A stretch of DNA of 64,000 bases. It comes from Antedon mediterranea. Lineage: Eukaryota; Echinodermata; Crinoidea; Comatulida; Antedonidae. The notes under the pieces were generated by a model, which saw only the letters and a list, made by a program, of their open reading frames with translations, had not been told where the DNA came from and ran no database searches. Where the stretch lies: assembly GCF_964355755.1 (NCBI RefSeq), contig NC_092671.1, forward strand, positions 22,162,001-22,226,000, written 5' to 3'. Shown here in pieces: positions 1 to 64,000 of the stretch. The first letter of the stretch is position 1, and every line of letters begins with the position of its first letter. Position numbers and translations under genes: made by a program.

Positions 1-505
1 AAAAAAAATATTCGTAGAGGTTCGAACCCGCTACTGCGAGAACTCAAACCTGAGCATTACCCGTTACGCCTCAAACCAGTGGATGACTGAAGAGCTGATA
101 ATACTCTATTTATATGAAATTAATAATAAATCAATGAAAAATAATGCAATGCAACTTTGTTTCTGATTTTAAAAAAGGTTCACTTGTTTAGGCCTGACAT
201 TTACAACCCTCAAAATATCTCACTTTCAAAAACAATATTTATTTTAAATAAAAAAAAAAAAAAACAAAATATCCGTAGAGGTTCGAACCCACTAGTGAGA
301 GCACTCAAACTTGAGCATTACCCGTTACGCCACAAACCAGTAGATGACTGAAGAGCTGATAATACTCTATTTATATGAAATTAATAATAAATCAATGAAA
401 AATAATGCCATGCAACTTTGTTTCTGATTTTAAAAAAGGTTCACTTGTTTAGGCCTGACATTTACAACCCTCAAAATATCTCACTTTCAAAAACAATATT
501 TATTT

Positions 506-529
506 AAAAAAAAAAAAAAAGAAACAAAA
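506..529 (-). terminator. Pol III-type T-run terminators (representative)
   Basis: Downstream of the B box on the minus strand there is a T4 run (526-529) and then a T15 run (506-520). T-runs of four or more end Pol III transcription, giving a predicted RNA of about 80 to 100 nt. The long run is present in essentially all monomers and varies widely in length, up to 24 at 50,257-50,280. Confidence 0.6.
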
Positions 530-539
530 TATCCGTAGA

Positions 540-550
540 GGTTCGAACCC
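540..550 (-). promoter_or_regulatory. Pol III B box (representative)
   Basis: The minus strand reads GGGTTCGAACC, an exact fit to the B-box core GWTCRANNC. It lies about 30 bases downstream of the A box, within the usual range. The core GGTTCGAACC is its own reverse complement, so the B-box word is present on both strands, but only the minus strand has an A box upstream of it. Confidence 0.75.
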
Positions 551-580
551 ACTAGTGAGAGCACTCAAACTTGAGCATTA

Positions 581-592
581 CCCGTTACGCCA
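581..592 (-). promoter_or_regulatory. Pol III A box (representative)
   Basis: The minus strand reads TGGCGTAACGGG, which fits the tRNA A-box consensus TRGYNNARNNGG at every constrained place. Variants in the array include cccgttacgcct, cccgctacgcc, cccattacgcc and accggttacgcc on the plus strand, and a form with one base lost (cccgttcgccgc, for example near 23,476 and 26,352). Confidence 0.7.
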
Positions 593-626
593 CAAACCAG
601 TAGATGACTGAAGAGCTGATAATACT

Positions 627-635
627 CTATTTATA
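627..635 (-). promoter_or_regulatory. TATA-like box upstream of tRNA-like unit (representative)
   Basis: The minus strand reads TATAAATAG. It starts 43 nt upstream of the A box, so initiation about 30 nt downstream would fall some 13 nt before the A box, the usual spacing for a tRNA-type gene. The word (ctatttatatg on the plus strand) is kept in most monomers. Variants such as ctatatatatg remain TATA-like, while ctattcatatg near 16,055 breaks it. Transcription itself is not shown by the sequence. Confidence 0.55.
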
Positions 636-1845
636 TGAAATAAATAATAAATCAATGAAAAATAATGCCATGCAACTTTGTTTCTGATTTTAAAAAAGGT
701 CCACTTGTTTAGGCCTGACATTTACAACCCTCAAAATATCTCACTTTCAAAAACAATATTTATTTTCAATAAAAAAAAAAAAAAAAAAAAATATTCGTAG
801 AGGTTCGAACCCACTACTGCGAGAACTCAAACATGAGCATTACCCGTTACGCCTCAAACCAGTAGATGACTGAAGAGCTGATAATACTCTATTTATATGA
901 AATTAATAATAAATCAATGAAAAATAATGCCATGCAACTTTGTTTCTGATTTTAAAAAAAGGTTCACTTGTTTAGGCCTGACATTTACAACCCTCAAAAT
1001 ATCTTACTTTCAAAAACAATATTTATTTAAAAAAAAAAAAAAGAAACAAAATATCCGTAGAGGTTCGAACCCACTAGTGAGAGCACTCAAACTTGAGCAT
1101 TACCCGTTACGCCACAAACCAGTAGATGACTGAAGAGTTGATAATACTCTATTTATATGAAATAAATAATAAATCAATGAAAAATAATGCCATGCAACTT
1201 TGTTTCTGATTTTAAAAAAGGTCCAATTGTTTAGGCCTGACATTTACAACCCTCAAAATATCTCACTTTCAAAAACAATATTTATTTTCAATAAAAAAAA
1301 AAAAAAAAAATATTCGGAGAGGTTCGAACCCACTACTGCGAGAACTCAAACCTGAGCATTACCCGTTACGCCTCAAACCAGTAGATGACTGAAGAGCTGA
1401 TAATACTCTATTTATATGAAATTAATAATAAATCAATGAAAAATAATGCAATGCAACTTTGTTTCTGATTTTAAAAAAAGTTCACTTGTTTAGGCCTGAC
1501 ATTTACAACCCTCAAAATATCTCACTTTCAAAAACAATATTTATTTTAAATAAAAAAAAAAAAAGAAACAAAATATCCGTAGAGGTTTGAACCCACTAGT
1601 GAGAGCACTCAAACTTGAGCATTACCCGTTACGCCACAAACCAGTAGATGACTGAAGAGCTGATAATACTCTATTTATATGAAATAAATAATAAATCAAT
1701 GAAAAATAATGCCATGCAACCTTGTTTCTGATTTTAAAAAAGGTCCACTTGTTTAGGCCTGATATTTACAACCCTCAAAATATCTCACTTTCAAAAACCA
1801 TATTTATTTTCAATTTAAAAAAAAAAGAAAAAAAATATCCCTAGA

Positions 1846-1855
1846 GGTTCGACCC
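1846..1855 (-). promoter_or_regulatory. Deleted B box of the GGTTCGACCC subfamily (representative)
   Basis: The plus strand reads ggttcgaccc where most monomers have ggttcgaaccc; one A is missing. On the minus strand this turns GTTCGAACC into GGTCGAACC, which no longer fits GWTCRANNC at its second base. The lesion is shared by a whole subfamily, recognisable by the following cactactcagagc. Copies occur for example near 3,150, 5,435, 11,480, 18,570, 20,300, 37,260 and 59,420. Confidence 0.75.
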
Positions 1856-3999
1856 ACTACTCAGAGCACTCAAACCTGAGCATTAGCCGTTACGCCACAA
1901 ACCAGTAGATGACTGAAGAGCTTATAATAGTCTATTTATATGAAATGAATGATCAATCAATGAAAAATAATGCCATGCAACTTTGTTTCTGATTTTAAAA
2001 AATATCCATTTGTTTAGGCCTGACATTCACAACCCTAAAAAATATCTCATTTTCAAAAACAATATTTATTTGCAATAAGAAAAAAAAAAGCAATATCCCT
2101 AGAGGTTCGAACCCACTACTGCGAGAACTCAAACCTGAGCATTACCCGTTACGCCTCAAACCAGTAGATGACTGAAGAGCTGATAATACTCTATTTATAT
2201 GAAATTAGAAATAAATCAATGAAAAATAATGCCATGCAACTTTGTTTCTGATTTTAAAAAAGGTTCACTTGTTTAGGCCTGACATTTACAACCCTCAAAA
2301 TATCTCACTTTCAAAAACAATATTTATTTCAAATAAATAAAAAAAAGAAACAAAATATCCGTAGAGGTTCGAACGCACTAGTGAGAGCACTCAAACTTGA
2401 GTATTACCCGTTACGCCACAAACCAGTAGATGACTGAAGAGCTGATAATACTCTATTTATATGAAATAAATAATAAATCAATGAAAAATAATGCCATGCA
2501 ACTTTGTTTCTGATTTTAAAAAAGGTCCACTTGTTTAGGCCTGACATTTACAACCCTCAAAATATCTCACTTTCAAAAACAATATTTATTTTCAATAAAA
2601 AAAAAAAAAAAAAAATATTCGTAGAGGTTCGAACCCACTACTGCGAGAACTCAAACCTGAGCATTATCCGTTACGCCTCAAACCAGTAGATGACTGAAGA
2701 GCTGATAATACTCTATTTATATGAAATTCATAATAAATCAATGAAAAATAATGCAATGCAACTTTGTTTCTGATTTTAAAAAAGGTTCACTTGTTTAGGC
2801 CTGACATTTACAACCCTCAAAATATCTCACTTTCAAAAACAATATTTATTTTAAATAAAAAAAAAAAAAGAAACAAAATATCCGTAGAGGTTCGAACCCA
2901 CTAGTGAGAGCACGTAAACTTGAGCATTACCCGTTACGCCACAAACCAGTAGATGACTAAAGAGCTGATAATACTCTATTTATATGAAATAAATAATAAA
3001 TCAATGAAAAATAATGCCATGCAACTTTGTTTCTGATTTTAAAAAAGGTCCACTTGTTTAGGCCTGATATTTACAACCCTCAAAATATCTCACTTTCAAA
3101 AACCATATTTATTTTCAATTTAAAAAAAAAAGAAAAAAAATATCCCTAGAGGTTCGACCCACTACTCAGAGCACTCCAACCTGAGCATTACCCGTTACGC
3201 CACAAACCAGTAGATGACTGAAGAGCTGATAATAGTCTATTTATATGAAATGAATGATCAATCAATGAAAAATAATGCCATGCAACTTTGTTTCTGATTT
3301 TAAAAAAGGTCCACTTGTTTAGGCCTGACATTTACAACCCTCAAAATATCTCACTTTCAAAAACCATATTTATTTTCAATTTAAAAAAAAAAGAAAAAAA
3401 ATATCCCTAGAGGTTCGACCCACTACTCAGAGCACTCAAAACTGAGCATTACCCGTTACGCCACAAACCAGTAGATGACTGAAGAGCTGATAATAGTCTA
3501 TTTATATGAAATGAATGATCAATCAATGAAAAATAATGCCATGCAACTTTGTTTCTGATTTAAAAAAAGGTTCACTTGTTTAGGCCTGACATTTACAACC
3601 CTAAAAATATCTCACTTTCAAAAACAATATTTATTTTCAATTTAAAAAAAAAAATCCCTAGAGGTTCGAACCCACTACTGAGACAACTCAAACCTGAGCA
3701 TTATCCGTTACGCCACCAACCAGTAGGTGTCTGAGGAGCTGATAATAGTCTATTTATATGAAATGAATGATCAATCAATGAAAAATAATGCCATGTAACT
3801 TTGTTTCTGATTTTAAAAAAGGTTCACTTGTTTTGGCCTGACATTTACAACCCTCAAAATATCTCACTTTCAAAAACAATATTTTTTCAATTAAAAAAAA
3901 AGAAGAAATAAAATATCAGTAGAGGTTCGAACCCACTAGTGAGAGCACTGAAACTTGAGCATTACCCGCTACGCCACAAACCAGTAGATCACTGAAGAG

Positions 4000-4110
4000 C
4001 TGATAATACTCTATTTATATGAAATAAATAATAAATCAATGAAAAATAATGCCATGCAACTTTGTTTCTGATTTAAAAAAAGGTTCATATGTTCTATTTA
4101 TATGAAATGA
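4000..4110 (+). repeat. Truncated monomer, deletion junction
   Basis: The monomer runs normally to aaaggttcatatgtt and then continues directly with ctatttatatgaaatg, skipping the rest of the spacer, the A-run and the whole tRNA-like unit. The short unit has TATA-like sequence but no A box, B box or T-run of its own. The same junction is at about 7,138-7,150 (3,056-bp copy) and 14,230-14,243 (older copy, reading ttcatttgttctattt). Confidence 0.85.
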
Positions 4111-5290
4111 ATGATCAGTCAATGAAAAATAATGCCATGCAACTTTGTTTCTGATTTTAAAAAAGATCCATTTGTTTAGGCCTGACATTCACAACCCTAA
4201 AAAATATCTCATTTTCCCAAAAAATATTTATTTTCAATAAGAAAAAAAAAAGCAATATCCCTAGAGGTTAGAATTCGCTACTGAGAGCACTCAAACCTGG
4301 GTATTACCCGTTACGCCACAAATCAGTAGATAAGTAAAGAGCTGATAATAGTCTATTTATATGAAATTAATGATCAATCAATGAAAAATAATGCCATGCA
4401 ACTTTGTTTCTGATTTTAAAAAAGGTTCATTTGTTTAGGCCTGACATTTACAACCCTCAAAATATCTCACTTTCAAAAAAAAAATTTATTTTCAATAAAA
4501 AAAAAAAGAAAAGAAATATCCCTAGAGGTTCGAACCCACTACTGCGAACACTCAAACTTGAGCATTACCCGTTACGCCTCAAACCAGTAGATGACTGAAG
4601 AGCTGATAATACTTTATTTATATGAAATGAATAATAAATCAATGAAAAATAATGCCATGCAACTTTGTTTCTGATTTTAAAAAAGGTTCACTTGTTTAGG
4701 CCGGACATTTACAACCCTCAAAATATCTCACCTTCAAAAACAATATTTATTTTCAAACAAAAAAAAAGAAAAAAAATATCCCTAGAAGTTCGAACCCACT
4801 ATTGAAATCAATCAAACCTGAGCATTACCCGTTACGCCGCAAACCAGTATATGACTGAAGAGCTGATAATAGTCTATTTATATGAAATGGATGATCAATC
4901 AATGAAAAATAATGCCATGCAACTTTGTTTCTGATTTTAAAAAAGGTTCACTTGTTTAGGCCTGACAGTTGCAACCCTCAAAATATCTCACTTTCAAAAA
5001 CAATATTTATTTTCAATTAACAAAAAAATTAAAAAAAATACCCGTATAGGTTCGAACCCACTACTGAGAGCACTCAAACCTGAGCATTACCCGTTACGCC
5101 ACAAACCAGTAGATGACTGAGGAGCTGATAATAGTCTATATATATGAAATGAATGATCAATCAATGAAAAATAATGCTATGCAACTTTGTTTCTGATTGA
5201 AAAAAATGTTCACTTGTTTAGGCCTGACATTTACAACCCTCAAAATATCTCACTTTCAAAAACAATATTTATTTTCAATTAAAAAAAAAA

Positions 5291-5340
5291 TATCCTTACA
5301 GGTTGGAACCCGCTACCCATTTTAAAAAAGGTCCACTTGT
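5291..5340 (+). repeat. Chimeric monomer junction
   Basis: After ggttggaacccgctac the sequence jumps through ccc into attttaaaaaaggtcc, skipping the A-box half of the tRNA-like unit and the TATA-like region. It leaves a B-box-like remnant without an A box. Identical junctions at about 8,367-8,380 and 9,786-9,799 mark copies of the 3,056-bp and 1,419-bp blocks. Confidence 0.85.
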
Positions 5341-8264
5341 TTAGCCCTGACATTTACAACCCTCAAAATATCTCACTTTCAAAATCCATATTTATTTTCA
5401 ATTTAAAAAAAAAAGAAAAAAAATATCCCTAGAGGTTCGACCCACTACTCAGAGCACTCAAACCTGAGCATTACCCGTTACGCCACAAACCAGTAGATGA
5501 CTGAAGAGCTGATAATAGTCTATTTATATGAAATGAATGATCAATCAATGAAAAATAATGCCATGCAACTTTGTTTCTGATTTTAAAAAAGGTCCACTTG
5601 TTTAGGCCTGACATTTACAACCCTCAAAATATCTCACTTTCAAAAACCATATTTATTTTCAATTTAAAAAAAAAAATCCCTAGAGGTTCGAACCCACTAC
5701 TGAGACAACTCAAACCTGAGCATTATCCGTTACGCCACCAACCAGTAGGTGACTGAGGAGCTGATAATAGTCTATTTATATGAAATGAATGATCAATCAA
5801 TGAAAAATAATGCCATGCAACTTTGTTTCTGATTTTAAAAAATATCCATTTGTTTAGGCCTGACATTCACAACCCTAAAAAATATCTCATTTTCAAAAAA
5901 AAATATTTATTTGCAATAAGAAAAAAAAAAGCAATATCACTAGAGGTTCGAACCCACTACTGCGAGAACTCAAACCTGAGCATTACCAATTACGCCTCAA
6001 ACCAGTAGATGACTGAAGAGCTGATAATACTCTATTTATATGAAATTAATAATAAATCAATGAAAAATAATGCCATGCAACTTTGTTTCTGATTTTAAAA
6101 AAGGTCCACTTGTTTAGGCCTGATATTTACAACCCTCAAAATATCTCACTTTCAAAAACCATATTTATTTTCAATTTAAAAAAAAAAGAAAAAAAATATC
6201 CCTAGAGGTTCGACCCACTACTCAGAGCACTCCAACCTGAGCATTACCCGTTACGCCACAAACCAGTAGATGACTGAAGAGCTGATAATAGTCTATTTAT
6301 ATGAAATGAATGATCAATCAATGAAAAATAATGCCATGCAACTTTGTTTCTGATTTTAAAAAAGGTCCACTTGTTTAGGCCTGACATTTACAACCCTCAA
6401 AATATCTCACTTTCAAAAACCATATTTATTTTCAATTTAAAAAAAAAAGAAAAAAAATATCCCTAGAGGTTCGACCCACTACTCAGAGCACTCAAAACTG
6501 AGCATTACCCGTTACGCCACAAACCAGTAGATGACTGAAGAGCTGATAATAGTCTATTTATATGAAATGAATGATCAATCAATGAAAAATAATGCCATGC
6601 AACTTTGTTTCTGATTTAAAAAAAGGTTCACTTGTTTAGGCCTGACATTTACAACCCTAAAAATATCTCACTTTCAAAAACAATATTTATTTTCAATTTA
6701 AAAAAAAAAATCCCTAGAGGTTCGAACCCACTACTGAGACAACTCAAACCTGAGCATTATCCGTTACGCCACCAACCAGTAGGTGTCTGAGGAGCTGATA
6801 ATAGTCTATTTATATGAAATGAATGATCAATCAATGAAAAATAATGCCATGTAACTTTGTTTCTGATTTTAAAAAAGGTTCACTTGTTTTGGCCTGACAT
6901 TTACAACCCTCAAAATATCTCACTTTCAAAAACAATATTTTTTCAATTAAAAAAAAAGAAGAAATAAAATATCAGTAGAGGTTCGAACCCACTAGTGAGA
7001 GCACTGAAACTTGAGCATTACCCGCTACGCCACAAACCAGTAGATCACTGAAGAGCTGATAATACTCTATTTATATGAAATAAATAATAAATCAATGAAA
7101 AATAATGCCATGCAACTTTGTTTCTGATTTAAAAAAAGGTTCATATGTTCTATTTATATGAAATGAATGATCAGTCAATGAAAAATAATGCCATGCAACT
7201 TTGTTTCTGATTTTAAAAAAGATCCATTTGTTTAGGCCTGACATTCACAACCCTAAAAAATATCTCATTTTCCCAAAAAATATTTATTTTCAATAAGAAA
7301 AAAAAAAGCAATATCCCTAGAGGTTAGAATTCGCTACTGAGAGCACTCAAACCTGGGTATTACCCGTTACGCCACAAATCAGTAGATAAGTAAAGAGCTG
7401 ATAATAGTCTATTTATATGAAATTAATGATCAATCAATGAAAAATAATGCCATGCAACTTTGTTTCTGATTTTAAAAAAGGTTCATTTGTTTAGGCCTGA
7501 CATTTACAACCCTCAAAATATCTCACTTTCAAAAAAAAAATTTATTTTCAATAAAAAAAAAAAGAAAAGAAATATCCCTAGAGGTTCGAACCCACTACTG
7601 CGAACACTCAAACTTGAGCATTACCCGTTACGCCTCAAACCAGTAGATGACTGAAGAGCTGATAATACTTTATTTATATGAAATGAATAATAAATCAATG
7701 AAAAATAATGCCATGCAACTTTGTTTCTGATTTTAAAAAAGGTTCACTTGTTTAGGCCGGACATTTACAACCCTCAAAATATCTCACCTTCAAAAACAAT
7801 ATTTATTTTCAAACAAAAAAAAAGAAAAAAAATATCCCTAGAAGTTCGAACCCACTATTGAAATCAATCAAACCTGAGCATTACCCGTTACGCCGCAAAC
7901 CAGTATATGACTGAAGAGCTGATAATAGTCTATTTATATGAAATGGATGATCAATCAATGAAAAATAATGCCATGCAACTTTGTTTCTGATTTTAAAAAA
8001 GGTTCACTTGTTTAGGCCTGACAGTTGCAACCCTCAAAATATCTCACTTTCAAAAACAATATTTATTTTCAATTAACAAAAAAATTAAAAAAAATACCCG
8101 TATAGGTTCGAACCCACTACTGAGAGCACTCAAACCTGAGCATTACCCGTTACGCCACAAACCAGTAGATGACTGAGGAGCTGATAATAGTCTATATATA
8201 TGAAATGAATGATCAATCAATGAAAAATAATGCTATGCAACTTTGTTTCTGATTGAAAAAAATG

Positions 8265-11069
8265 TTCACTTGTTTAGGCCTGACATTTACAACCCTCAAA
8301 ATATCTCACTTTCAAAAACAATATTTATTTTCAATTAAAAAAAAAATATCCTTACAGGTTGGAACCCGCTACCCATTTTAAAAAAGGTCCACTTGTTTAG
8401 GCCTGACATTTACAACCCTCAAAATATCTCACTTTCAAAATCCATATTTATTTTCAATTTAAAAAAAAAAGAAAAAAAATATCCCTAGAGGTTCGACCCA
8501 CTACTCAGAGCACTCAAACCTGAGCATTACCCGTTACGCCACAAACCAGTAGATGACTGAAGAGCTGATAATAGTCTATTTATATGAAATGAATGATCAA
8601 TCAATGAAAAATAATGCCATGCAACTTTGTTTCTGATTTTAAAAAAGGTCCACTTGTTTAGGCCTGACATTTACAACCCTCAAAATATCTCACTTTCAAA
8701 AACCATATTTATTTTCAATTTAAAAAAAAAAATCCCTAGAGGTTCGAACCCACTACTGAGACAACTCAAACCTGAGCATTATCCGTTACGCCACCAACCA
8801 GTAGGTGACTGAGGAGCTGATAATAGTCTATTTATATGAAATGAATGATCAATCAATGAAAAATAATGCCATGCAACTTTGTTTCTGATTTTAAAAAATA
8901 TCCATTTGTTTAGGCCTGACATTCACAACCCTAAAAAATATCTCATTTTCAAAAAAAAATATTTATTTGCAATAAGAAAAAAAAAAGCAATATCACTAGA
9001 GGTTCGAACCCACTACTGCGAGAACTCAAACCTGAGCATTACCAATTACGCCTCAAACCAGTAGATGACTGAAGAGCTGATAATACTCTATTTATATGAA
9101 ATTAATAATAAATCAATGAAAAATAATGCCATGCAACTTTGTTTCTGATTTTAAAAAAGGTTCACTTATTTAGGCCTGACATTTACAACCCTCAAAATAT
9201 CTCACTTTCAAAAACAATATTTATTTTAAATAAATAAAAAAAAGAAACAAAATATCCGTAGAGGTTCGAACGCACTAGTGAGAGCACTCAAACTTGAGCA
9301 TTACCCGTTACGCCACAAACCAGTAGATGACTGAAGAGCTGATAATACTCTATTTATATGAAATAAATAATAAATCAATGAAAATTAATGCCATGCAACT
9401 TTGTTTCTGATTTTAAAAAAGGTCCACTTGTTTAGGCCTGACATTTACAACCCTCAAAATATCTCACTTTCAAAAACAATATTTTTTTCAATAAAAAAAA
9501 AAAAGAAAAAAAATATTCGTAGAGGTTCGAACCCACTACTGCGAAAACTCAAACCTGAGCATTACCCGTTACGCCTCAAACCAGTAGATGACTGAAGACC
9601 TGATAATACTCTATTTATATGAAATTCATAATAAATCAATGAAAAATAATGCCATGCAACTTTGTTTCTGATTTTAAAAAAGGTTCACTTGTTTAGGCCT
9701 GACATTTACAACCCTCAAAATATCTCACTTTCAAAAACAATATTTATTTTCAATTAAAAAAAAAATATCCTTACAGGTTGGAACCCGCTACCCATTTTAA
9801 AAAAGGTCCACTTGTTTAGGCCTGACATTTACAACCCTCAAAATATCTCACTTTCAAAATCCATATTTATTTTCAATTTAAAAAAAAAAGAAAAAAAATA
9901 TCCCTAGAGGTTCGACCCACTACTCAGAGCACTCAAACCTGAGCATTACCCGTTACGCCACAAACCAGTAGATGACTGAAGAGCTGATAATAGTCTATTT
10001 ATATGAAATGAATGATCAATCAATGAAAAATAATGCCATGCAACTTTGTTTCTGATTTTAAAAAAGGTCCACTTGTTTAGGCCTGACATTTACAACCCTC
10101 AAAATATCTCACTTTCAAAAACCATATTTATTTTCAATTTAAAAAAAAAAATCCCTAGAGGTTCGAACCCACTACTGAGACAACTCAAACCTGAGCATTA
10201 TCCGTTACGCCACCAACCAGTAGGTGACTGAGGAGCTGATAATAGTCTATTTATATGAAATGAATGATCAATCAATGAAAAATAATGCCATGCAACTTTG
10301 TTTCTGATTTTAAAAAATATCCATTTGTTTAGGCCTGACATTCACAACCCTAAAAAATATCTCATTTTCAAAAAAAAATATTTATTTGCAATAAGAAAAA
10401 AAAAAGCAATATCACTAGAGGTTCGAACCCACTACTGCGAGAACTCAAACCTGAGCATTACCAATTACGCCTCAAACCAGTAGATGACTGAAGAGCTGAT
10501 AATACTCTATTTATATGAAATTAATAATAAATCAATGAAAAATAATGCCATGCAACTTTGTTTCTGATTTTAAAAAAGGTTCACTTATTTAGGCCTGACA
10601 TTTACAACCCTCAAAATATCTCACTTTCAAAAACAATATTTATTTTAAATAAATAAAAAAAAGAAACAAAATATCCGTAGAGGTTCGAACGCACTAGTGA
10701 GAGCACTCAAACTTGAGCATTACCCGTTACGCCACAAACCAGTAGATGACTGAAGAGCTGATAATACTCTATTTATATGAAATAAATAATAAATCAATGA
10801 AAATTAATGCCATGCAACTTTGTTTCTGATTTTAAAAAAGGTCCACTTGTTTAGGCCTGACATTTACAACCCTCAAAATATCTCACTTTCAAAAACAATA
10901 TTTTTTTCAATAAAAAAAAAAAAGAAAAAAAATATTCGTAGAGGTTCGAACCCACTACTGCGAAAACTCAAACCTGAGCATTACCCGTTACGCCTCAAAC
11001 CAGTAGATGACTGAAGACCTGATAATACTCTATTTATATGAAATTCATAATAAATCAATGAAAAATAAT
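8265..11069 (+). repeat. 1,419-bp tandem duplication (two copies)
   Basis: About 8,265-9,650 recurs at offset 1,419 as about 9,684-11,069. Both copies hold the chimeric junction (8,367 and 9,786), the ttgcaataag monomer and the aaaattaatgcc variant (near 9,382 and 10,801). The period is not a whole number of 260-bp monomers because a shortened monomer is included. Confidence 0.85.
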
Positions 11070-48700: not shown

Positions 48701-48820
48701 TCAATTTAAAAAAAAAGAAAAGAAATATCCCTAGGGGGTCGAACCCACTACTGCGAACACTCAAACTTGAGCATTACCCGTTACTCCTCAAACCAGTAGA
48801 TGACTGAAGAGCTGATAATA

Positions 48821-48833
48821 CTCTATTTATATG
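48821..48833 (+). other. Second unoccupied copy of the target site
   Basis: Same arrangement as 33,186-33,198, at an offset of 15,635, inside the second super-repeat. Confidence 0.8.
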
Positions 48834-50256: not shown

Positions 50257-50280
50257 AAAAAAAAAAAAAAAAAAAAAAAA
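50257..50280 (-). repeat. Longest A-run seen (24 A; T-run on the minus strand)
   Basis: A homopolymer of 24 A at the place of the terminator-like T-run. Its counterpart in copy 1, near 35,925-35,948, is of similar length. Homopolymers like this are prone to sequencing error, so lengths are approximate. Confidence 0.7.
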
Positions 50281-51510: not shown

Positions 51511-54500
51511 CACCCTCAAAATATCTCACTTTCAAAATCCATATTTATTTTCAATTTAAAAAAAAAAGAAAAAAAATATCCCTAGAGGTTCGACCCACTA
51601 CTCAGAGCACTCAAACCTGAGCATTACCCGTTACGCCACAAACCAGTAGATGACTGAAGAGCTGATAATAGTCTATTTATATGAAATGAATGATCAATCA
51701 ATGAAAAATAATGCCATGCAACTTTGTTTCTGATTTTAAAAAATATCCATTTGTTTAGGCCTGACATTCACAACCCTAAAAAATATCTCATTTTCAAAAA
51801 AAAACATTTATTTTCAATAAGAAAAAAAAAAGCAATATCCCTAGAGGTTCGAACCCACTACTGCGAGAACTCAAACCTGAGCATTACCCGTTACGCCTCA
51901 AACCAGTAGATGACTGAAGAGCTGATAATACTCTATTTATATGACATTAATAATAAATCAATGAAAAATAATGCCATGCAACTTTGTTTCTGATTTTAAA
52001 AAAGGTTCACTTGTTTAGGCCTGACATTTACAACCCTCAAAATATCTCACTTTCAAAAACAATATTTATTTTAAATAAAAAAAAAAAAGAAACAAAATAT
52101 CCGTAGAGGTTCGAACCCACTAGTGAGAGCACTCAAACTTGAGCATTACCCGTTACGCCACAAACCAGTAGATGACTGAAGAGCTGATAATAATCTATTT
52201 ATATGAAATTAATAATAAATCAATGAAAAATAATGCCATGCAACTTTGTTTCTGATTTTAAAAAAGGTCCACTTGTTTAGGCCTGACATTTACAACCCTC
52301 AAAATATCTCACTTTCAAAAACAATATTTTTTCAATTAAAAAAAAAAAAGAAATAAAATATCAGTAGAGGTTCGAACCCACTAGTGAGAGCACTCAAACT
52401 TGAGCATTACCCGCTACGCCACAATCCAGTAGATGACTGAAGAGCTGATAATACTCTATTTATATGAAATAAATAATAAATCAATGAAAAATAAGGCCAT
52501 GCAACTTTGTTTCTGATTTTAAAAAAGGTTCATTTGTTTAGGCCTGTCATTTACAACCCTCAAAATATCTCACCTACAAAAAAAATATTTATTTTCAATA
52601 AAAAAAAAAGAAAAGAAATATCCCTAGAGGTTCGAACCCACTACTGCGAGCACTCAAACTTGAGCATTACCCGTTACGCCTCAAACCAGTAGATGACTGA
52701 AGAGCTGATAATACTCTATTTATATGAAATGAATAATAAATCAATGAAAAATAATGCCATGCAACTTTGTTTCTGATTTTAAAAAAGGTTCAATTGTTTA
52801 GGCCTGACATTTACAACCCTCAAAATATCTCACCGTCAAAAACAATATTTATTTTCAAATAAAAAAAAAGAAAAAAAATATCCCTAGAAGTTCGAACCCA
52901 CTATTGAAATCACTCAAACCTGAGCATTACCCGTTCGCCGCAAACCATTTTATGACTGAAGAGCTGATAATAGTCTATTTATATGAAATAGATGATCAAT
53001 CAATGAAAAATAATGCCATGCAACTTTGTTTCTGATTTTAAAAAAGGTTCACTTGTTTAGGCCTGACAGTTGCAACCCTAAAAATATCTCACTTTCAAAA
53101 ACAATATTTATTTTAAATTAAAAAAAAAAGAAAAACAAAATACCAGTATAGGTTCGAACCCACTACTGAAAGCACTCAAACCTGAGCATTATCCGTTACG
53201 CCACAAACCAGTAGATAACTGCGGAGCTGATAATAGTCCATTTATATGAAATGAATGATCAATCAATGAAAAATAATGCTATGCAACTTTGTTTCTGATT
53301 TTAAAAACGGTCCACTTGTTTAGGCCTGACATTTACAACCCTCAAAATATCTCACTTTCAAAAACAATATTTATTTTCAATTAAAAAAAAAAGAAAAAAA
53401 TATTCGTAGAGGTTCGAACCCACTACTGCGAGAACTCAAACCTGAGCATTACCCGTTACGCCTCAAACCAGTAGATGACTGAAGAGCTGATAATACTCTA
53501 TTTATATGAAATTAATAATAAATCAATGAAAAATAATGCCATGCAACTTTGTTTCTGATTTTAAAAAAGGTTCACTTGTTTAGGCCTGACATTTACAACC
53601 CTCAAAATATCTCACTTTCAAAAACAATATTTATTTTAAATAAAAAAAAAAGAGAAACAAAATATCCGTAGAGGTTCGAACCCACTAGTGAGAGCACTCA
53701 AACTTGAGCATTACCCGTTACGCCACAAACCAGTAGATGACTGAAGAGCTGACAATACTCTATTTATATGAAATAAATAATAAATCAATGAAAAATAATG
53801 CCATGCAACTGTGTTTCTGATTTTGAAAAAAGGTCCACTTGTTTAGGCCTGACATTTACAACCCTCAAAATATCTCACTTTCAAAAACAATATTTTTTTC
53901 AATAAAAAAAAAAAAGAAAAAAAATATTCGTAGAGGTTCGAACCCACTACTGCGAAAACTCAAACCTGAGCATTACCCGTTACGCCTCAAACCAGTAGAT
54001 GACTGAAGAGCTGATAATACTCTATTTATATGAAATTAATAATAAATCAATGAAAAATAATGCCATGCAACTTTGTTTCTGATTTTAAAAAAGGTTCACT
54101 TGTTTAGGCCTGACAATTACAACCCTCAAAATATCTCACTTTCAAAAACAATATTTATTTTAAATAAAAAAAAAAAAAAAAAAAAAATATCCGTAGAGGT
54201 TCGAACCCACTAGTGAGAGCACTCAAACTTGAGCATTACCCGTTACGCCACAAACCAGTAGATGACTGAAGAGCTGACAATACTCTATTTATATGAAATA
54301 AATAATAAATCAATGAAAAATAATGCCATGCAACTGTGTTTCTGATTTTAAAAAAGGTCCACTTGTTTAGGCCTGACATTTACACCCTCAAAATATCTCA
54401 CTTTCAAAATCCATATTTATTTTCAATTTAAAAAAAAAAGAAAAAAAATATCCCTAGAGGTTCGACCCACTACTCAGAGCACTCAAACCTGAGCATTACC

Positions 54501-57500
54501 CGTTACGCCACAAACCAGTAGATGACTGAAGAGCTGATAATAGTCTATTTATATGAAATGAATGATCAATCAATGAAAAATAATGCCATGCAACTTTGTT
54601 TCTGATTTTTAAAAATATCCATTTGTTTAGGCCTGACATTCACAACCCTAAAAAATATCTCATTTTCAAAAAAAATATTTATTTTCAATAAGAAAAAAAA
54701 AAGCAATATCCCTAGAGGTTCGAACCCACTACTGCGAGAACTCAAACCTGAGCATTACCCGTTACGCCTCAAACCAGTAGATGACTGAAGAGCTGATAAT
54801 ACTCTATTTATATGACATTAATAATAAATCAATGAAAAATAATGCCATGCAACTTTGTTTCTGGTTTTAAAAAAGGTTCACTTGTTTAGGCCTGACATTT
54901 ACAACCCTCAAAATATCTCACTTTCAAAAACAATATTTATTTTAAATAAAAAAAAAAAAGAAACAAAATATCCGTAGAGGTTCGAACCCACTAGTGAGAG
55001 CACTCAAACTTGAGCATTACCCGTTACGCCACAAACCAGTAGATGACTGAAGAGCTGATAATAATCTATTTATATGAAATTCATAATAAATCAATGAAAA
55101 ATAATGCCATGCAACTTTGTTTCTGATTTTAAAAAAGGTCCACTTGTTTAGGCCTGACATTTACAACCCTCAAAATATCTCACTTTCAAAAACAATATTT
55201 TTTCAATTAAAAAAAAAAAAGAAATAAAATATCAGTAGAGGTTCGAACCCACTAGTGAGAGCACTCAAACTTGAGCATTACCCGCTACGCCACAATCCAG
55301 TAGATGACTGAAGAGCTGATAATACTCTATTTATATGAAATAAATAATAAATCAATGAAAAATAAGGCCATGCAACTTTGTTTCTGATTTTAAAAAAGGT
55401 TCATTTGTTTAGGCCTGTCATTTACAACCCTCAAAATATCTCACCTACAAAAAAAATATTTATTTTCAATAAAAAAAAAAGAAAAGAAATATCCCTAGAG
55501 GTTCGAACCCACTACTGCGAGCACTCAAACTTGAGCATTACCCGTTACGCCTCAAACCAGTAGATGACTGAAGAGCTGATAATACTCTATTTATATGAAA
55601 TGAATAATAAATCAATGAAAAATAATGCCATGCAACTTTGTTTCTGATTTTAAAAAAGGTTCAATTGTTTAGGCCTGACATTTACAACCCTCAAAATATC
55701 TCACCGTCAAAAACAATATTTATTTTCAAATAAAAAAAAAAGAAAAAAATATCCCTAGAAGTTCGAACCCACTATTGAAATCACTCAAACCTGAGCATTA
55801 CCCGTTCGCCGCAAACCATTTTATGACTGAAGAGCTGATAATAGTCTATTTATATGAAATAGATGATCAATCAATGAAAAATAATGCCATGCAACTTTGT
55901 TTCTGATTTTATAAAAGGTTCACTTGTTTAGGCCTGACAGTTGCAACCCTAAAAATATCTCACTTTCAAAAACAATATTTATTTTAAATTAAAAAAAAAA
56001 GAAAAAAAAAATACCAGTATAGGTTCGAACCCACTACTGAAAGCACTCAAACCTGAGCATTATCCGTTACGCCACAAACCAGTAGATAACTGCGGAGCTG
56101 ATAATAGTCCATTTATATGAAATGAATGATCAATCAATGAAAAATAATGCCATTCAACTTTGTTTCTGATTTTAAAAACTGTCCACTTGTTTAGGCCTGA
56201 CATTTACAACCCTCAAAATATCTCACTTTCAAAAACAATATTTATTTTCAATTAAAAAAAAAAGAAAAAAAATATTCGTAGAGGTTCGAACCCACTACTG
56301 CGAGAACTCAAACCTGAGCATTACCCGTTACGCCTCAAACCAGTAGATGACTGAAGAGCTGATAATACTCTATTTATATGAAATTAATAATAAATCAATG
56401 AAAAATAATGCCATGCAACTTTGTTTCTGATTTTAAAAAAGGTTCACTTGTTTAGGCCTGACATTTACAACCCTCAAAATATCTCACTTTCAAAAACAAT
56501 ATTTATTTTAAATAAAAAAAAAAAGAAACAAAATATCCGTAGAGGTTCGAACCCACTAGTGAGAGCACTCAAACTTGAGCATTACCCGTTACGCCACAAA
56601 CCAGTAGATGACTGAAGAGCTGACAATACTCTATTTATATGAAATAAATAATAAATCAATGAAAAATAATGCCATGCAACTGTGTTTCTGATTTTAAAAA
56701 AGGTCCACTTGTTTAGGCCTGACATTTACAACCCTCAAAATATCTCACTTTCAAAAACAATATTTTTTTCAATAAAAAAAAAAAGAAAAAAAATATTCGT
56801 AGAGGTTCGAACCCACTACTGCGAAAACTCAAACCTGAGCATTACCCGTTACGCCTCAAACCAGTAGATGACTGAAGAGCTGATAATACTCTATTTATAT
56901 GAAATTAATAATAAATCAATGAAAAATAATGCCATGCAACTTTGTTTCTGATTTTAAAAAAGGTTCACTTGTTTAGGCCTGACAATTACAACCCTCAAAA
57001 TATCTCACTTTCAAAAACAATATTTATTTTAAATAAAAAAAATAAAAAAAACAAAATATCCGTAGAGGTTCGAACCCACTAGTGAGAGCACTCAAACTTG
57101 AGCATTACCCGTTACGCCACAAACCAGTAGATGACTGAAGAGCTGACAATACTCTATTTATATGAAATAAATAATAAATCAATGAAAAATAATGCCATGC
57201 AACTGTGTTTCTGATTTTAAAAAAGGTCCACTTGTTTAGGCCTGACATTTACACCCTCAAAATATCTCACTTTCAAAATCCATATTTATTTTCAATTTAA
57301 AAAAAAAAGAAAAAAAATATCCCTAGAGGTTCGACCCACTACTCAGAGCACTCAAACCTGAGCATTACCCGTTACGCCACAAACCAGTAGATGACTGAAG
57401 AGCTGATAATAGTCTATTTATATGAAATGAATGATCAATCAATGAAAAATAATGCCATGCAACTTTGTTTCTGATTTTTAAAAATATCCATTTGTTTAGG

Positions 57501-60500
57501 CCTGACATTCACAACCCTAAAAAATATCTCATTTTCAAAAAAAATATTTATTTTCAATAAGAAAAAAAAAAGCAATATCCCTAGAGGTTCGAACCCACTA
57601 CTGCGAGAACTCAAACCTGAGCATTACCCGTTACGCCTCAAACCAGTAGATGACTGAAGAGCTGATAATACTCTATTTATATGAAATGAATAATAAATCA
57701 ATGAAAAATAATGCCATGCAACTTTGTTTCTGATTTTAAAAAAGGTTCAATTGTTTAGGCCTGACATTTACAACCCTCAAAATATCTCACCGTCAAAAAC
57801 AATATTTATTTTCAAATAAAAAAAAAAGAAAAAAATATCCCTAGAAGTTCGAACCCACTATTGAAATCACTCAAACCTGAGCATTACCCGTTCGCCGCAA
57901 ACCATTTTATGACTGAAGAGCTGATAATAGTCTATTTATATGAAATAGATGATCAATCAATGAAAAATAATGCCATGCAACTTTGTTTCTGATTTTATAA
58001 AAGGTTCACTTGTTTAGGCCTGACAGTTGCAACCCTAAAAATATCTCACTTTCAAAAACAATATTTATTTTAAATTAAAAAAAAAAGAAAAAAAAAATAC
58101 CAGTATAGGTTCGAACCCACTACTGAAAGCACTCAAACCTGAGCATTATCCGTTACGCCACAAACCAGTAGATAACTGCGGAGCTGATAATAGTCCATTT
58201 ATATGAAATGAATGATCAATCAATGAAAAATAATGCCATTCAACTTTGTTTCTGATTTTAAAAACGGTCCACTTGTTTAGGCCTGACATTTACAACCCTC
58301 AAAATATCTCACTTTCAAAAACAATATTTATTTTCAATTAAAAAAAAAAGAAAAAAAATATTCGTAGAGGTTCGAACCCACTACTGCGAGAACTCAAACC
58401 TGAGCATTACCCGTTACGCCTCAAACCAGTAGATGACTGAAGAGCTGATAATACTCTATTTATATGAAATTAATAATAAATCAATGAAAAATAATGCCAT
58501 GCAACTTTGTTTCTGATTTTAAAAAAGGTTCACTTGTTTAGGCCTGACATTTACAACCCTCAAAATATCTCACTTTCAAAAACAATATTTATTTTAAATA
58601 AAAAAAAAAAGAAACAAAATATCCGTAGAGGTTCGAACCCACTAGTGAGAGCACTCAAACTTGAGCATTACCCGTTACGCCACAAACCAGTAGATGACTG
58701 AAGAGCTGACAATACTCTATTTATATGAAATAAATAATAAATCAATGAAAAATAATGCCATGCAACTGTGTTTCTGATTTTAAAAAAGGTCCACTTGTTT
58801 AGGCCTGACATTTACAACCCTCAAAATATCTCACTTTCAAAAACAATATTTTTTTCAATAAAAAAAAAAAGAAAAAAAATATTCGTAGAGGTTCGAACCC
58901 ACTACTGCGAAAACTCAAACCTGAGCATTACCCGTTACGCCTCAAACCAGTAGATGACTGAAGAGCTGATAATACTCTATTTATATGAAATTAATAATAA
59001 ATCAATGAAAAATAATGCCATGCAACTTTGTTTCTGATTTTAAAAAAGGTTCACTTGTTTAGGCCTGACAATTACAACCCTCAAAATATCTCACTTTCAA
59101 AAACAATATTTATTTTAAATAAAAAAAATAAAAAAAACAAAATATCCGTAGAGGTTCGAACCCACTAGTGAGAGCACTCAAACTTGAGCATTACCCGTTA
59201 CGCCACAAACCAGTAGATGACTGAAGAGCTGACAATACTCTATTTATATGAAATAAATAATAAATCAATGAAAAATAATGCCATGCAACTGTGTTTCTGA
59301 TTTTAAAAAAGGTCCACTTGTTTAGGCCTGACATTTACACCCTCAAAATATCTCACTTTCAAAATCCATATTTATTTTCAATTTAAAAAAAAAAGAAAAA
59401 AAATATCCCTAGAGGTTCGACCCACTACTCAGAGCACTCAAACCTGAGCATTACCCGTTACGCCACAAACCAGTAGATGACTGAAGAGCTGATAATAGTC
59501 TATTTATATGAAATGAATGATCAATCAATGAAAAATAATGCCATGCAACTTTGTTTCTGATTTTTAAAAATATCCATTTGTTTAGGCCTGACATTCACAA
59601 CCCTAAAAAATATCTCATTTTCAAAAAAAATATTTATTTTCAATAAGAAAAAAAAAAGCAATATCCCTAGAGGTTCGAACCCACTACTGCGAGAACTCAA
59701 ACCTGAGCATTACCCGTTACGCCTCAAACCAGTAGATGACTGAAGAGCTGATAATACTCTATTTATATGACATTAATAATAAATCAATGAAAAATAATGC
59801 CATGCAACTTTGTTTCTGATTTTAAAAAAGGTTCACTTGTTTAGGCCTGACATTTACAACCCTCAAAATATCTCACTTTCAAAAACAATATTTATTTTAA
59901 ATAAAAAAAAAAAAGAAACAAAATATCCGTAGAGGTTCGAACCCACTAGTGAGAGCACTCAAACTTGAGCATTACCCGTTACGCCACAAACCAGTAGATG
60001 ACTGAAGAGCTGATAATAATCTATTTATATGAAATTAATAATAAATCAATGAAAAATAATGCCATGCAACTTTGTTTCTGATTTTAAAAAAGGTCCACTT
60101 GTTTAGGCCTGACATTTACAACCCTCAAAATATCTCACTTTCAAAAACAATATTTTTTCAATTAAAAAAAAAAAAGAAATAAAATATCAGTAGAGGTTCG
60201 AACCCACTAGTGAGAGCACTCAAACTTGAGCATTACCCGCTACGCCACAATCCAGTAGATGACTGAAGAGCTGATAATACTCTATTTATATGAAATAAAT
60301 AATAAATCAATGAAAAATAAGGCCATGCAACTTTGTTTCTGATTTTAAAAAAGGTTCATTTGTTTAGGCCTGTCATTTACAACCCTCAAAATATCTCACC
60401 TACAAAAAAAATATTTATTTTCAATAAAAAAAAAAGAAAAGAAATATCCCTAGAGGTTCGAACCCACTACTGCGAGCACTCAAACTTGAGCATTACCCGT

Positions 60501-62200
60501 TACGCCTCAAACCAGTAGATGACTGAAGAGCTGATAATACTCTATTTATATGAAATGAATAATAAATCAATGAAAAATAATGCCATGCAACTTTGTTTCT
60601 GATTTTAAAAAAGGTTCAATTGTTTAGGCCTGACATTTACAACCCTCAAAATATCTCACCGTCAAAAACAATATTTATTTTCAAATAAAAAAAAAAGAAA
60701 AAAAATATCCCTAGAAGTTCGAACCCACTATTGAAATCACTCAAACCTGAGCATTACCCGTTCGCCGCAAACCATTTTATGACTGAAGAGCTGATAATAG
60801 TCTATTTATATGAAATAGATGATCAATCAATGAAAAATAATGCCATGCAACTTTGTTTCTGATTTTAAAAAAGGTTCACTTGTTTAGGCCTGACAGTTGC
60901 AACCCTAAAAATATCTCACTTTCAAAAACAATATTTATTTTAAATTAAAAAAAAAAGAAAAAAAAAATACCAGTATAGGTTCGAACCCACTACTGAAAGC
61001 ACTCAAACCTGAGCATTATCCGTTACGCCACAAACCAGTAGATAACTGCGGAGCTGATAATAGTCCATTTATATGAAATGAATGATCAATCAATGAAAAA
61101 TAATGCCATGCAACTTTGTTTCTGATTTTAAAAAAGGTCCACTTGTTTAGGCCTGACATTTACAACCCTCAAAATATCTCACTTTCAAAAACAATATTTA
61201 TTTTCAATTAAAAAAAAAAAAGAAAAAAAATATTCGTAGAGGTTCGAACCCACTACTGCGAGAACTCAAACCTGTGCACTACCGCTTACGCCACAAACCA
61301 GTAGATGACTGAAGAGCTGATAACAGTCTATTTATATGAAATGAATGATCCATCAAAGTAAAATGATGTTATGCAACTTTGTTTCTTATTTTAAAAAAAG
61401 GTCCATTTGGTTAGGCTTGACATTTAAAACCCTCAAAATATCTCACTTTCAAAAACCATATTTATTTTCAATTTTAAAAAAAAGAAAAAAAAAATCCCTT
61501 GAGGTTCGACCCACTACTCAGAGCACTCAAACCTGAGCATTACCCGTTACGCCACAAACCAGTAGATGACTGAAGAGCTGATAATAGTCTATTTATATGA
61601 AATAAATTATCAATCAATGAAAAATAATGCCATGCAACTTTGTTTCTGATTTTAAAAAAGGTCCACTTGTTTAGGCCTGACATTTACAACCCTCAAAATA
61701 TATCACTTTCAAAAACCATATTTATTTTCAATGTAAAAAAAAAGAAAAAACGTATTCCTAGAGGTTCGACCCACTACTCAGAGCACTCAAACCTGAGCAT
61801 TACTCGTTACGCCACAAACCAGTAGATGACTGAAGAGCTGGTAATAGTCTATTTATATGAAATGAATTATCAATCAATGAAAAATAATGCCATGCAACTT
61901 TGTTTCTGATTTTAAAAAAGATCCATTTGTTTAGGCCTGACATTTACAACCCTAAAAAATATCTCATTTTCAAAAAAAATATTTATTTTCAATAAGAAAA
62001 AAAAAGCAATATCCCTAGAGGTTGGAACCCACTAGTGAGAGCACTCAAACTTGAGCATTACCCGTTACGCCACAAACCAGTAGATGACTGAAGAGCTGAT
62101 AATACTCTATTTATATGAAATAAATAATAAATCAATGAAAATTAATGCCATGCAACTTTGTTTCTGATTTTAAAAAAGGTCCACTTGTTTAGGCCTGACA
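51511..62200 (+). repeat. 11-monomer higher-order repeat, second run, with one 8-monomer unit
   Basis: The marker caccctc is at 51,511, 54,383, 57,252 and 59,338. The spacings are 2,872, 2,869 and then 2,086 bp, so the unit after 57,252 has eight monomers where the others have eleven. It lacks the aataaggccatgc monomer and its neighbours, and the join near 57,683 passes from one tRNA-like unit to the next without breaking the monomer phase. Confidence 0.85.
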
Positions 62201-64000
62201 TTTACAACCCTCAAACTATCTCACTTTCAAAAACCATATTTATTTTAAATTTAAAAAAAAAAGAAAAAAAATATTCGTAGAGGTTCGAACCCACCACTGC
62301 GAGAACTCAAACCTGGGCACTACCAGTTACGCTACAAACCAGTAGATGACTGAAGAGCTGATAATAGTCTATTTATATGAAATTAATAATAAATCAATGA
62401 AAAATAATGCCATGCAACTTTGTTTCTGATTTTTAAAAAGGTCCACTTGTTTAGGCCTGACATTTACAACCCTCAAAATATCTCACTTTCAAAAACAATA
62501 TTTATTTTCAATTAAAAAAAAAAGAAAAAAAATATTCGTAGATGTTCGAACCCACTACTGCGAGAACTCAAACCTGAGCACTACCGGTTACGCCACAAAC
62601 CAGTAGATGACTGAAGAGCTGATAACAGTCTATTTATATGAAATGAATGATCCATCAAAGTAAAATGATGTTATGCAACTTTGTTTCTGATTTTAAAAAA
62701 AGGTCCACTTGGTTAGGCTTGACATTTAAAACCCTCAAAATATCTCACTTTCAAAAACCATATTTATTTTCAATTTAAAAAAAAAGAAAAAAAAAATCCC
62801 TTGAGGTTCGACCCACTACTCAGAGCACTCAAACCTGAGCATTACCCGTTACGCCACAAACCAGTAGATGACTGAAGAGCTGATAATAGTCTATTTATAT
62901 GAAATAAATTATCAATCAATGAAAAATAATGCCATGCAACTTTGTTTCTGATTTTAAAAAAGGTCCACTTGTTTAGGCCTGACATTTACAACCCTCAAAA
63001 TATCTCACTTTCAAAAACCATATTTATTTTCAATGTAAAAAAAAGAAAAAACGTATCCCTAGAGGTTCGACCCACTACACAGAGCACTCAAACCTGAGCA
63101 TTACTCGTTACGACACAAACCAGTAGATGACTGAAGAGCTGGTAATAGTCTATTTATATGAAATGAATTATCAATCAATGAAAAATAATGCCATGCAACT
63201 TTGTTTCTGATTTTAAAAAAGATCCATTTGTTTAGGCCTGACATTTACAACCCTAAAAAATATCTCATTTTCAAAAAAAAATATTTTGTTTTCAATAAGA
63301 AAAAAAAAAGCAATATCCCTAGAGGTTGGAACCCACTAGTGAGAGCACTCAAACTTGAGCATTACCCGTTACGCCACAAACCAGTAGATGACTGAAGAGC
63401 TGATAATACTCTATTTATATGAAATAAATAATAAATCAATGAAAAATAATGCCATGCAACTTTGTTTCTGATTTTAAAAAAGGTCCACTTGTTTAGGCCT
63501 GACATTTACAACCCTCAAAATATCTCACTTTCAAAAACAATATTTTTTTCAATAAAAAAAAAAGAAAAAAAATATTCGTAGAGGTTCGAACCCACTACTG
63601 CGAAAACTCAAACCTGAGCATTACCCATTACGCCTCAAACCAGTAGATGACTGAAGAGCTGATAATACTCTATTTATATGAAATTAATAATAAATCAATG
63701 AAAAATAATGCCATGCAACTTTGTTTCTGATTTTAAAAAAGGTTCACTTGTTTAGGCCTGACATTTACAACCCTCAAAATATCTCACTTTCAAAAACAAT
63801 ATTTATTTTAAATAAAAAAAAAAAAAGAAACAAAATATCCGTAGAGGTTCGAACCCACTAGTGAGAGCACTCAAACTTGAGCATTACCCGTTACGCCACC
63901 AACCAGTAGATGACTGAAGAGCTGACAATACTCTATTTATATGAAATAAATAATAAATATATGAAAAATAATGCCATGCAACTGTGTTTCTGATTTTAAA

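What the first reader, a model, noticed from the sequence alone, without database searches (positions are those of the whole stretch)
1..64000. Satellite whose every monomer is laid out as a Pol III transcription unit
Seen: on the minus strand nearly all of the ~240 monomers carry, in fixed order and spacing, TATAAATAG, an A box (TGGCGTAACGGG), a B box (GGTTCGAACC) and T-runs. In the copy at 506-635 the TATA-like box starts 43 nt before the A box, the boxes are about 30 nt apart, and a T4 run follows the B box within 11 nt. Known: this is the architecture of tRNA-type Pol III genes, and tRNA gene arrays with spacers exist, for example in Entamoeba. Inference: the array may make large amounts of an 80-100 nt tRNA-like RNA, or act as a dense TFIIIC platform. 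I know of no described satellite with exactly this unit, but could not search.
Basis: partly seen in the sequence, partly recalled or inferred. Interest (0 to 1): 0.87.

Follow-up and report, generated by a model that had tools for sequence, protein, structure and literature searches.

The report
Transposon-born satellite with Pol III layout

Summary
The layout is real. On the minus strand the 261-bp monomers carry TATAAATAG, an A box, a B box and a T-run with the spacing of a type 2 Pol III gene (if the A box starts at +12, TATA lies at -32/-24, the B box begins at +55 and the first T4 ends at +78). "Nearly all" holds only with mismatches allowed: the window has 94 exact A boxes and 141 exact B boxes.

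The source is in the same genome. The TATA-A-B-T unit and the monomer's spacer both lie in a dispersed ~4.4-4.7 kb element with long terminal inverted repeats (216 word matches; 46 places inspected), which also carries a divergent tRNA-Val-like gene and CRE-like sites. At three array edges satellite and element are joined, twice in exact register at TATA. So the satellite most likely amplified inside a foldback-like transposon and inherited the Pol III layout.

Boxes show no excess conservation against new mutations (687 monomers) and no significant excess in 40 dispersed copies. No tRNA fold is predicted for the unit. Transcription could not be tested. tRNA-like "polIII" satellites (newt, frogs) and foldback-born satellites (Tetris) are known separately; I found no report of the combination.

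The parts
1..18718 (-). 261-bp satellite array, first block (unit reads 5'->3' on the minus strand)
   Evidence: TRF; BLAST of consensus
19417..21423 (-). 261-bp satellite array, second block
22488..64000 (-). 261-bp satellite array, third block (continues beyond the window)
627..635 (-). TATAAATAG, example monomer (-32 to -24 if the A box starts at +12)
   Evidence: positions of boxes from PMC7279448
581..592 (-). A box TGGCGTAACGGG, example monomer
540..549 (-). B box GGTTCGAACC, example monomer
526..529 (-). first T4 run, 10 nt past the B box; longer T-run at 520-506
   Evidence: distance distribution
526..603 (-). predicted primary transcript of the example monomer (78 nt; inference, no RNA data)
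   Evidence: geometry only
18719..19416 (-). insert with inverted ends ACTCGGGGTAC/GTACCCCGAGT carrying a tRNA-Val(AAC) at 18793-18866 and a second, uncalled tRNA-Val-like copy near 19075-19145 (inspection)
21424..22487 (.). unrelated insert, looks like a non-LTR retrotransposon fragment with an AAT-type tail (inspection only)

Best explanation
The satellite is the amplified core of a non-autonomous, foldback-like DNA transposon. That element carries, among other things, a tRNA-related Pol III unit (CRE-like sites, TATA, A box, B box, T-run) placed back to back with a tRNA-Val-like gene. SHOWN: both halves of the 261-bp monomer occur in the element in the same orientation, and arrays on C2 and C8 join element sequence at the TATA box in exact register. 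INFERRED: in one or more element copies a segment running from one T-rich tract to the next was tandemly duplicated by unequal exchange at those tracts, then expanded and homogenised into higher-order arrays. The Pol III layout came along as a passenger. Individual monomers now drift freely; many have broken A or B boxes. INFERRED and untested: the intact minority may still bind TFIIIC/TFIIIB and make some short minus-strand RNA of about 75-80 nt ending in U; I put about 1 in 3 on appreciable Pol III transcription.
For: Exact 16-mer from the A-box region: 1990 places in the genome (555 + / 1435 -), reversed control 0; only the first 100 places are listed, all on C1, and six of them are isolated. 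All six carry the TATA-A-B-T unit, one (L034) with a changed B box; five of six (not L039) also have a called tRNA-Val on the opposite strand and a shared upstream flank. Two long copies (a about 4.7 kb, b about 4.4 kb) match along their length and stop matching at both ends: TIRs (196 bp, 86% identical, measured in copy a), inverted 97-bp tandem tracts inside them, and matching 8-bp flank words in both copies (CCATTTGA in b, GCTGGCGG in a), though 2-5 bases between word and TIR are unassigned at one end, so exact termini are unsettled. Besides the unit they hold the satellite spacer 2.2-2.4 kb upstream (79% in a, 77% in b, gaps counted). Element-specific word, up to 2 mismatches: 216 places (101+/115-), control 0; the 100 listed (all exact) lie on C1-C10. 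Satellite head versus element consensus: 100 of 108 aligned positions identical. Array edges: element sequence ends at TATAAATAG of the first monomer in L013 (C2) and L026 (C8); in L014 an array end, with a truncated spacer, runs into element sequence that normally follows the spacer. Higher-order periodicity: best lag 11 monomers, 45 pairs above 98.5%.
Against: The direction is not proven: an element that captured satellite pieces would give the same homology. The L013 and L026 edges share diagnostic changes and may be one event copied between chromosomes. Three outer edges (L011, L019, L023) border an 88-bp satellite and one (L020) other sequence, not the element; no other non-satellite stretch of the array loci held matched the element. 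Substitution identity between the two element copies and the satellite is not higher for the promoter unit (86%, 89%) than for the spacer (94%, 92%; my count, gaps left out), neutral for origin but against constraint. No transposase or autonomous partner was sought.
Confidence: 0.73

Rival explanations
1. Active Pol III satellite: the array is kept because its monomers are transcribed by Pol III or bind TFIIIC (boundary, replication or heterochromatin role).
For: Canonical geometry in the monomers; TATA among the best-kept 10% of stretches; majority-base frequency slightly higher in boxes than elsewhere, 0.953 vs 0.936 (99 of 262 rotations as high); all 8 differences between satellite head and element consensus fall outside the 31 box positions (my count); 202 of 687 monomers keep TATA+A+B+T4 under human consensus; the element also has CRE-like sites upstream, as some Pol III genes do; 25 of 40 dispersed copies keep A+B+T4.
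Against: Rare substitutions per site in 561 distinct monomers: boxes 2.94 (TATA 3.11, A 2.00, B 3.90), rest 3.00; 134 of 262 rotations of the box pattern do as well. The A box lies below the median conservation. In 40 dispersed copies boxes 0.098 vs other unit sites 0.114 substitutions per site, permutation P 0.30; B alone P 0.18. No structured RNA (z -0.40 to -1.12). Redundancy in an array weakens selection on single copies, so this is absence of evidence rather than disproof.
Confidence: 0.3
2. Satellite first: the array is older and the transposon captured fragments of it.
For: The element holds two separate partial pieces (spacer; unit), and in copy b the spacer piece runs on into a sequence resembling a truncated TATAAATAGACT.
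Against: The element word occurs at 216 places; of 46 places inspected, 34 have a called tRNA beside the unit. Arrays join the element in register at the same boundary. Element copies with both boxes show several A-B spacings whereas the satellite has essentially one, as expected if the satellite sampled one subfamily.
Confidence: 0.2
3. Decayed tandem tRNA gene array, like the real tRNA-Lys and tRNA-Cys arrays elsewhere in this genome.
For: This genome has true tRNA arrays with units of about 140-176 bp; A and B boxes are tRNA-like.
Against: No tRNA match at E<=10 in 3000 bases of array or on the unit in eight element copies of the longer subfamily; three tRNA-array spacers score no higher against the satellite than the best of their shuffles; the satellite's sequence is found in a TIR element instead.
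Confidence: 0.03
4. SINE-derived satellite, as in squamate reptiles.
For: tRNA-related A/B head followed by a body.
Against: The two long dispersed copies end in long TIRs, the six isolated copies include DNA upstream of TATA, and no 3' A- or simple-repeat tail bounds the unit. A SINE could still be the remote source of the unit inside the element.
Confidence: 0.05

Closest known systems
Tetris foldback transposon and TIR-220 satellite, Drosophila virilis (PMC4079207; abstract and one Discussion section read)
   Same: Non-autonomous element with TIRs holding internal tandem repeats; satellite arrays of up to 66 copies arose by amplification inside the element.
   Different: In Tetris the amplified repeat is the TIR-internal tandem; here it is a core unit plus spacer with a Pol III layout, not the 97-bp TIR-internal repeat. 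No Pol III unit is mentioned in the parts of the Tetris paper that I read.
Rana/polIII, PolIII/TAN (Cynops), OAX (Xenopus satellite I), Hy/polIII (Hydromantes), as summarised in PMC10702118 (passages; original papers not seen)
   Same: Tandem repeats with a tRNA-like Pol III region (~360, ~250 and ~200 nt for TAN, Rana and Hy; OAX called too long for a proper satellite); PolIII/TAN can be transcribed in vitro.
   Different: Amphibian; the cited PolIII/TAN paper's title gives a retroposed tRNA-Glu origin, and the review doubts a tRNA origin for Hy/polIII (no box B); none is stated there to come from a TIR DNA element.
SINE-derived satellites of squamates (PMC10702118; abstract, passages and Discussion read)
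   Same: Mobile element with tRNA-related head seeds satellites repeatedly.
   Different: Source is a SINE; units often contain only part of the head.
PcP190 5S-derived frog satellite (PMC11675491; abstract read)
   Same: Satellite built on a Pol III gene, with RNA-seq evidence of transcription.
   Different: Similar to 5S rDNA (type 1 promoter, recalled).
4.5SH / 4.5SI RNA genes (PMC7279448 passages; PMC3440375 listing only)
   Same: A and B boxes plus TATA-like box and, in most such genes, a CRE upstream; RNAs of about 100 nt.
   Different: Functional genes of rodents; the tandem array of 4.5SH genes is recalled, not looked up.

Membership tests
Type 2 Pol III transcription unit | A box and B box at the canonical spacing, T-run downstream | tested here: met
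   consensus, and 248 of 687 monomers for A+B under the strict human consensus; geometry
Type 2 Pol III transcription unit | boxes under purifying selection | tested here: not met
   no significant excess conservation (array redundancy limits power; TATA could not be judged in the dispersed copies)
Type 2 Pol III transcription unit | transcription by Pol III / TFIIIC occupancy | not testable with these tools
   no RNA or ChIP data on hand
tRNA gene | cloverleaf recognised by covariance model or ARAGORN | tested here: not met
   monomers; unit in eight element copies:
Satellite derived from a foldback-like TIR element (Tetris-type) | parent element with long TIRs and internal tandem repeats | tested here: met
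   two long copies
Satellite derived from a foldback-like TIR element (Tetris-type) | target-site duplication of the parent | tested here: inconclusive
   matching 8-bp flank words in both copies examined, but 2-5 unassigned bases lie between word and TIR at one end
Satellite derived from a foldback-like TIR element (Tetris-type) | arrays physically inside or joined to element copies | tested here: met
   three edges (L013, L026, L014); three other edges join an 88-bp satellite and one other sequence
Satellite derived from a foldback-like TIR element (Tetris-type) | element older than satellite | tested here: inconclusive
   no related species available
SINE | retroposed copies with 3' tail and target duplications, starting at the transcription start | tested here: not met
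   (six isolated copies, two of them in full)

The most novel reading that the evidence does not exclude
A foldback-like DNA transposon carries a divergent pair of Pol III units (tRNA-Val-like gene and a CRE-TATA-A-B-T unit), and Pol III/TFIIIC activity at that core is what makes it prone to tandem amplification, so the genome repeatedly births satellites whose monomers are live TFIIIC-binding Pol III promoters.
Probability: 0.12. Interest if true: 0.78.

Novelty: new variant of a known kind. Interest (0 to 1): 0.52.

Why it matters
It gives a traceable birth record of a satellite: the dispersed parent, in-register junctions and the amplified product are all in one assembly. It also explains how a Pol III layout can fill an array without selection, which warns against reading function from repeated motifs. 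If the units prove transcribed, the array is a natural dense Pol III/TFIIIC platform for testing how such loci affect chromatin, replication and array growth.

Tried and rejected
Tandem tRNA-gene origin: rejected because no tRNA match was found for array or unit and the three tRNA-array spacers tried do not match. In one search the satellite head scored best against tRNA-Val copies (z 3.5-4.5), which may only reflect shared boxes. SINE origin: my first guess for the isolated hits; rejected when TIRs and upstream flank appeared. Structured RNA: three versions folded, z -0.72, -0.40, -1.12. Box conservation: no excess in the window for A and B, against rare mutations in 687 monomers or in 40 element copies. 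Comparing the two long element copies, the stretch from tRNA-Val to B box had 13 substitutions in 400 and 0 indels against 188 in 3677 and 52 indels elsewhere: suggestive for the whole core, but one pair only. One search used a faulty search setting (too few sites) and is replaced. Rows dropped: 19 of 246 intervals between TATA sites (length outside 245-275); only monomers between spacer anchors (up to 3 mismatches) 240-280 apart were kept, the number left out was not recorded, and only the array loci held were used; L039 left out of the mismatch counts; the 40 element copies are a hand-picked spread of the 100 listed, all exact matches to the word, so they lean to less diverged copies. Viral contigs hold no exact match to a 22-base head word. 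A protein search with a reverse transcriptase piece did not identify the species. Literature searches; none of the listed titles or abstract openings describes a TIR element with a Pol III unit that seeds a satellite; apart from the papers named in Closest known systems I opened none. A count of the element by its TIR was not obtained.
Full report
CHECK OF THE OBSERVATION. The window is one tandem array of period 261 (TRF, 244.7 copies), interrupted at 18719-19416 and 21424-22487. On the minus strand the order is TATAAATAG, A box, B box, T-run. Allowing mismatches there are 247 TATA, 235 A and 239 B sites, at near-constant spacing. With exact motifs the numbers are 207, 94 and 141. Human consensus boxes (text quoted) are both present in 248 of 687 monomers, and the whole set with TATA and T4 in 202 of 687. 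Chance is excluded: 26 of 20000 shuffles hold an A+B pair, and 0 of a second 20000 also a TATA before it.

GEOMETRY. PMC7279448 (passages) places box A around +12 to +22, box B around +54 to +64 and TATA, in plant and S. pombe tRNA genes, at -30/-24. Putting the satellite's A box at +12 puts TATAAATAG at -32/-24 and the B box at +55 to +64. The same passages say that animal tRNA genes rarely have a TATA box. The seven tRNA genes of this genome that I saw outside the satellite loci with upstream sequence show no TATAAATAG about 36 nt before the tRNA; some have TATA-like words nearer to it (inspection). So in these few cases the TATA is not this genome's tRNA promoter style.

IS IT UNDER SELECTION? 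Not detectably. In the window, 60% of stretches of its length are as well kept as, or better than, the A box, 39% for the B box and 10% for TATA. In 687 monomers (561 distinct) from the held array loci of C2, C8 and C9, rare substitutions per site are 2.94 in boxes (TATA 3.11, A 2.00, B 3.90) and 3.00 elsewhere, and 134 of 262 rotations of the box pattern do as well; the majority-base frequency is slightly higher in boxes, 0.953 against 0.936 (99 of 262 rotations as high). TATA-A spacing is kept in 98.5% and A-B in 94.8%, against an upper quartile of 97.7% for all stretches of that span. One in seven monomers (100 of 687) contains a B box that has lost a T. Redundancy in an array would hide weak selection, so this shows no constraint rather than no function.

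NO tRNA. ARAGORN and Rfam (gathering cut-off) call one tRNA in the window, tRNA-Val(AAC) at 18793-18866, inside an insert. The array itself gives nothing up to E=10 in 3000 bases, and three versions of the predicted RNA fold about as well as shuffles.

WHERE IT COMES FROM. The window is G000:C2:22162001-22226000 of an unnamed 354-Mb genome in 18 contigs. The same satellite lies on C8 and C9 and C7, and 16-mer hits at 261-bp steps show it on C1. An exact 16-mer from the A-box region occurs 1990 times (control 0). As 373 of 687 monomers and 12 of 40 element copies carry it, that means very roughly 3500 monomers (my estimate). Of the first 100 places listed, all on C1, six are isolated. All six carry the unit (L034 with a changed B box). 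Five also have a tRNA-Val-like gene on the opposite strand (best 50.4 bits) with CRE-like ATGACGTAAT and ATTACGTAAT between the two; L039 has the CRE-like sites but no called tRNA. Two long copies show what it is: an element of about 4.7 and 4.4 kb with TIRs (196 bp in copy a), inverted 97-bp tandem tracts inside them, internal repeats at steps of about 800-880 bp, and a piece that reads like a retrotransposon reverse transcriptase (inspection). Both copies have matching 8-bp words at their flanks, with 2-5 unassigned bases at one end, so the target duplication is likely but the termini are unsettled. The element also holds the satellite's spacer, 2.2-2.4 kb upstream of the unit. An element-specific word occurs 216 times (up to 2 mismatches, control 0), dispersed over C1-C10 in the 100 places listed.

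THE JUNCTIONS. Element sequence lies next to arrays at three edges and nowhere else in the non-satellite stretches of the array loci held. In L013 (C2) and L026 (C8) the element, with a decayed, uncalled tRNA-Val-like gene and altered CRE-like site, runs up to TATAAATAG and continues as the first monomer. That first monomer is a mosaic: its leader resembles an element subfamily and its B-box side matches the satellite. In L014 the other end of an array passes from a truncated spacer into the element sequence that follows the spacer in the dispersed copies. The two TATA junctions share private changes and may be one event. Outer edges at L011, L019 and L023 border an 88-bp satellite, and at L020 other sequence.

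THE UNIT IN THE ELEMENT. Forty copies were picked by hand, spread over the 100 listed places of the upstream word, so that A and B were not selected for; all are exact matches to the word and so lean to less diverged copies. The A consensus matches in 35 of 40, B in 30, both with T4 in 25. Substitutions per site are 0.118 in A, 0.075 in B, 0.138 between them and 0.091 in the leader; boxes versus the rest of the unit give P 0.30, B alone P 0.18. TATA cannot be judged because the word includes it. A tRNA is called in 29 of 40, 23 of them Val. A-B spacing differs among copies; several of the longer ones read TGTGGCCTAACGG or TGTGGCCGAACGG at the A box, which recalls class II (Ser/Leu) tRNAs from memory, but cmscan finds no tRNA on that unit (eight copies).

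MECHANISM. Shown: shared sequence, same orientation, in-register junctions, higher-order similarity (best lag 11 monomers). Inferred: loss of the 2.2-2.4 kb between spacer and unit, then unequal exchange between T-rich tracts, gave the first tandem copies; expansion and homogenisation followed. The Pol III layout was inherited. The reverse direction (element captured satellite) is possible and I give it 0.2.

KNOWN RELATIVES. Two known kinds meet here: tRNA-like tandem repeats of amphibians and SINE-derived satellites (PMC10702118), and satellites born inside a foldback element (Tetris, PMC4079207). I found no paper on the combination in searches (titles and abstract openings; open-licence PMC papers only). 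I rate it a new variant of a known kind.

Noticed in passing
G000:C8:23582228-23673161 (L029, L032); G000:C2:14176000-14186049 (L030); G000:C3:8100225 (L031): Real tRNA genes in tandem: tRNA-Lys(TTT) hits over some 90 kb, many at steps of about 175 bp; tRNA-Cys(GCA) with a unit of about 140 bp; and a Lys-like series.
   Followed up: partly
window 18719-19416; L013 4247-4944; L025 1-1067; L026 2297-4087; L028 5079-6622: A second, tRNA-Val-bearing insert family (one to four ARAGORN calls each) in the satellite. In the three copies whose ends I read (window, L013, L028) it has inverted ends like ACTCGGGGTAC and sits at the same T-run/AAAATCAG position.
   Followed up: partly
L020 3812-4281 and 5381-5779: Another tandem repeat (138-182 bp units) made of a different tRNA-like sequence with a B box, beside the C9 array; not called as tRNA.
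   Followed up: no
L010, L011, L019 3364-5454, L023 202-9346: An 88-bp satellite with longer-period units, and a switch of orientation near L011 3900-3939, flanks the 261-bp arrays on C2 and C9.
   Followed up: no
G000:C6:20244769-20394756: Seven element-word hits at steps of about 20-32 kb, all on one strand: perhaps a segmental array.
   Followed up: no
L020 near 7972: A sharp inversion point inside the C9 satellite array: monomers switch from minus to plus orientation.
   Followed up: no
L019 5454-10000: Several AGGCCTA-type motifs; from memory such motifs are common in echinoderm or hemichordate DNA, but the species was not identified.
   Followed up: no
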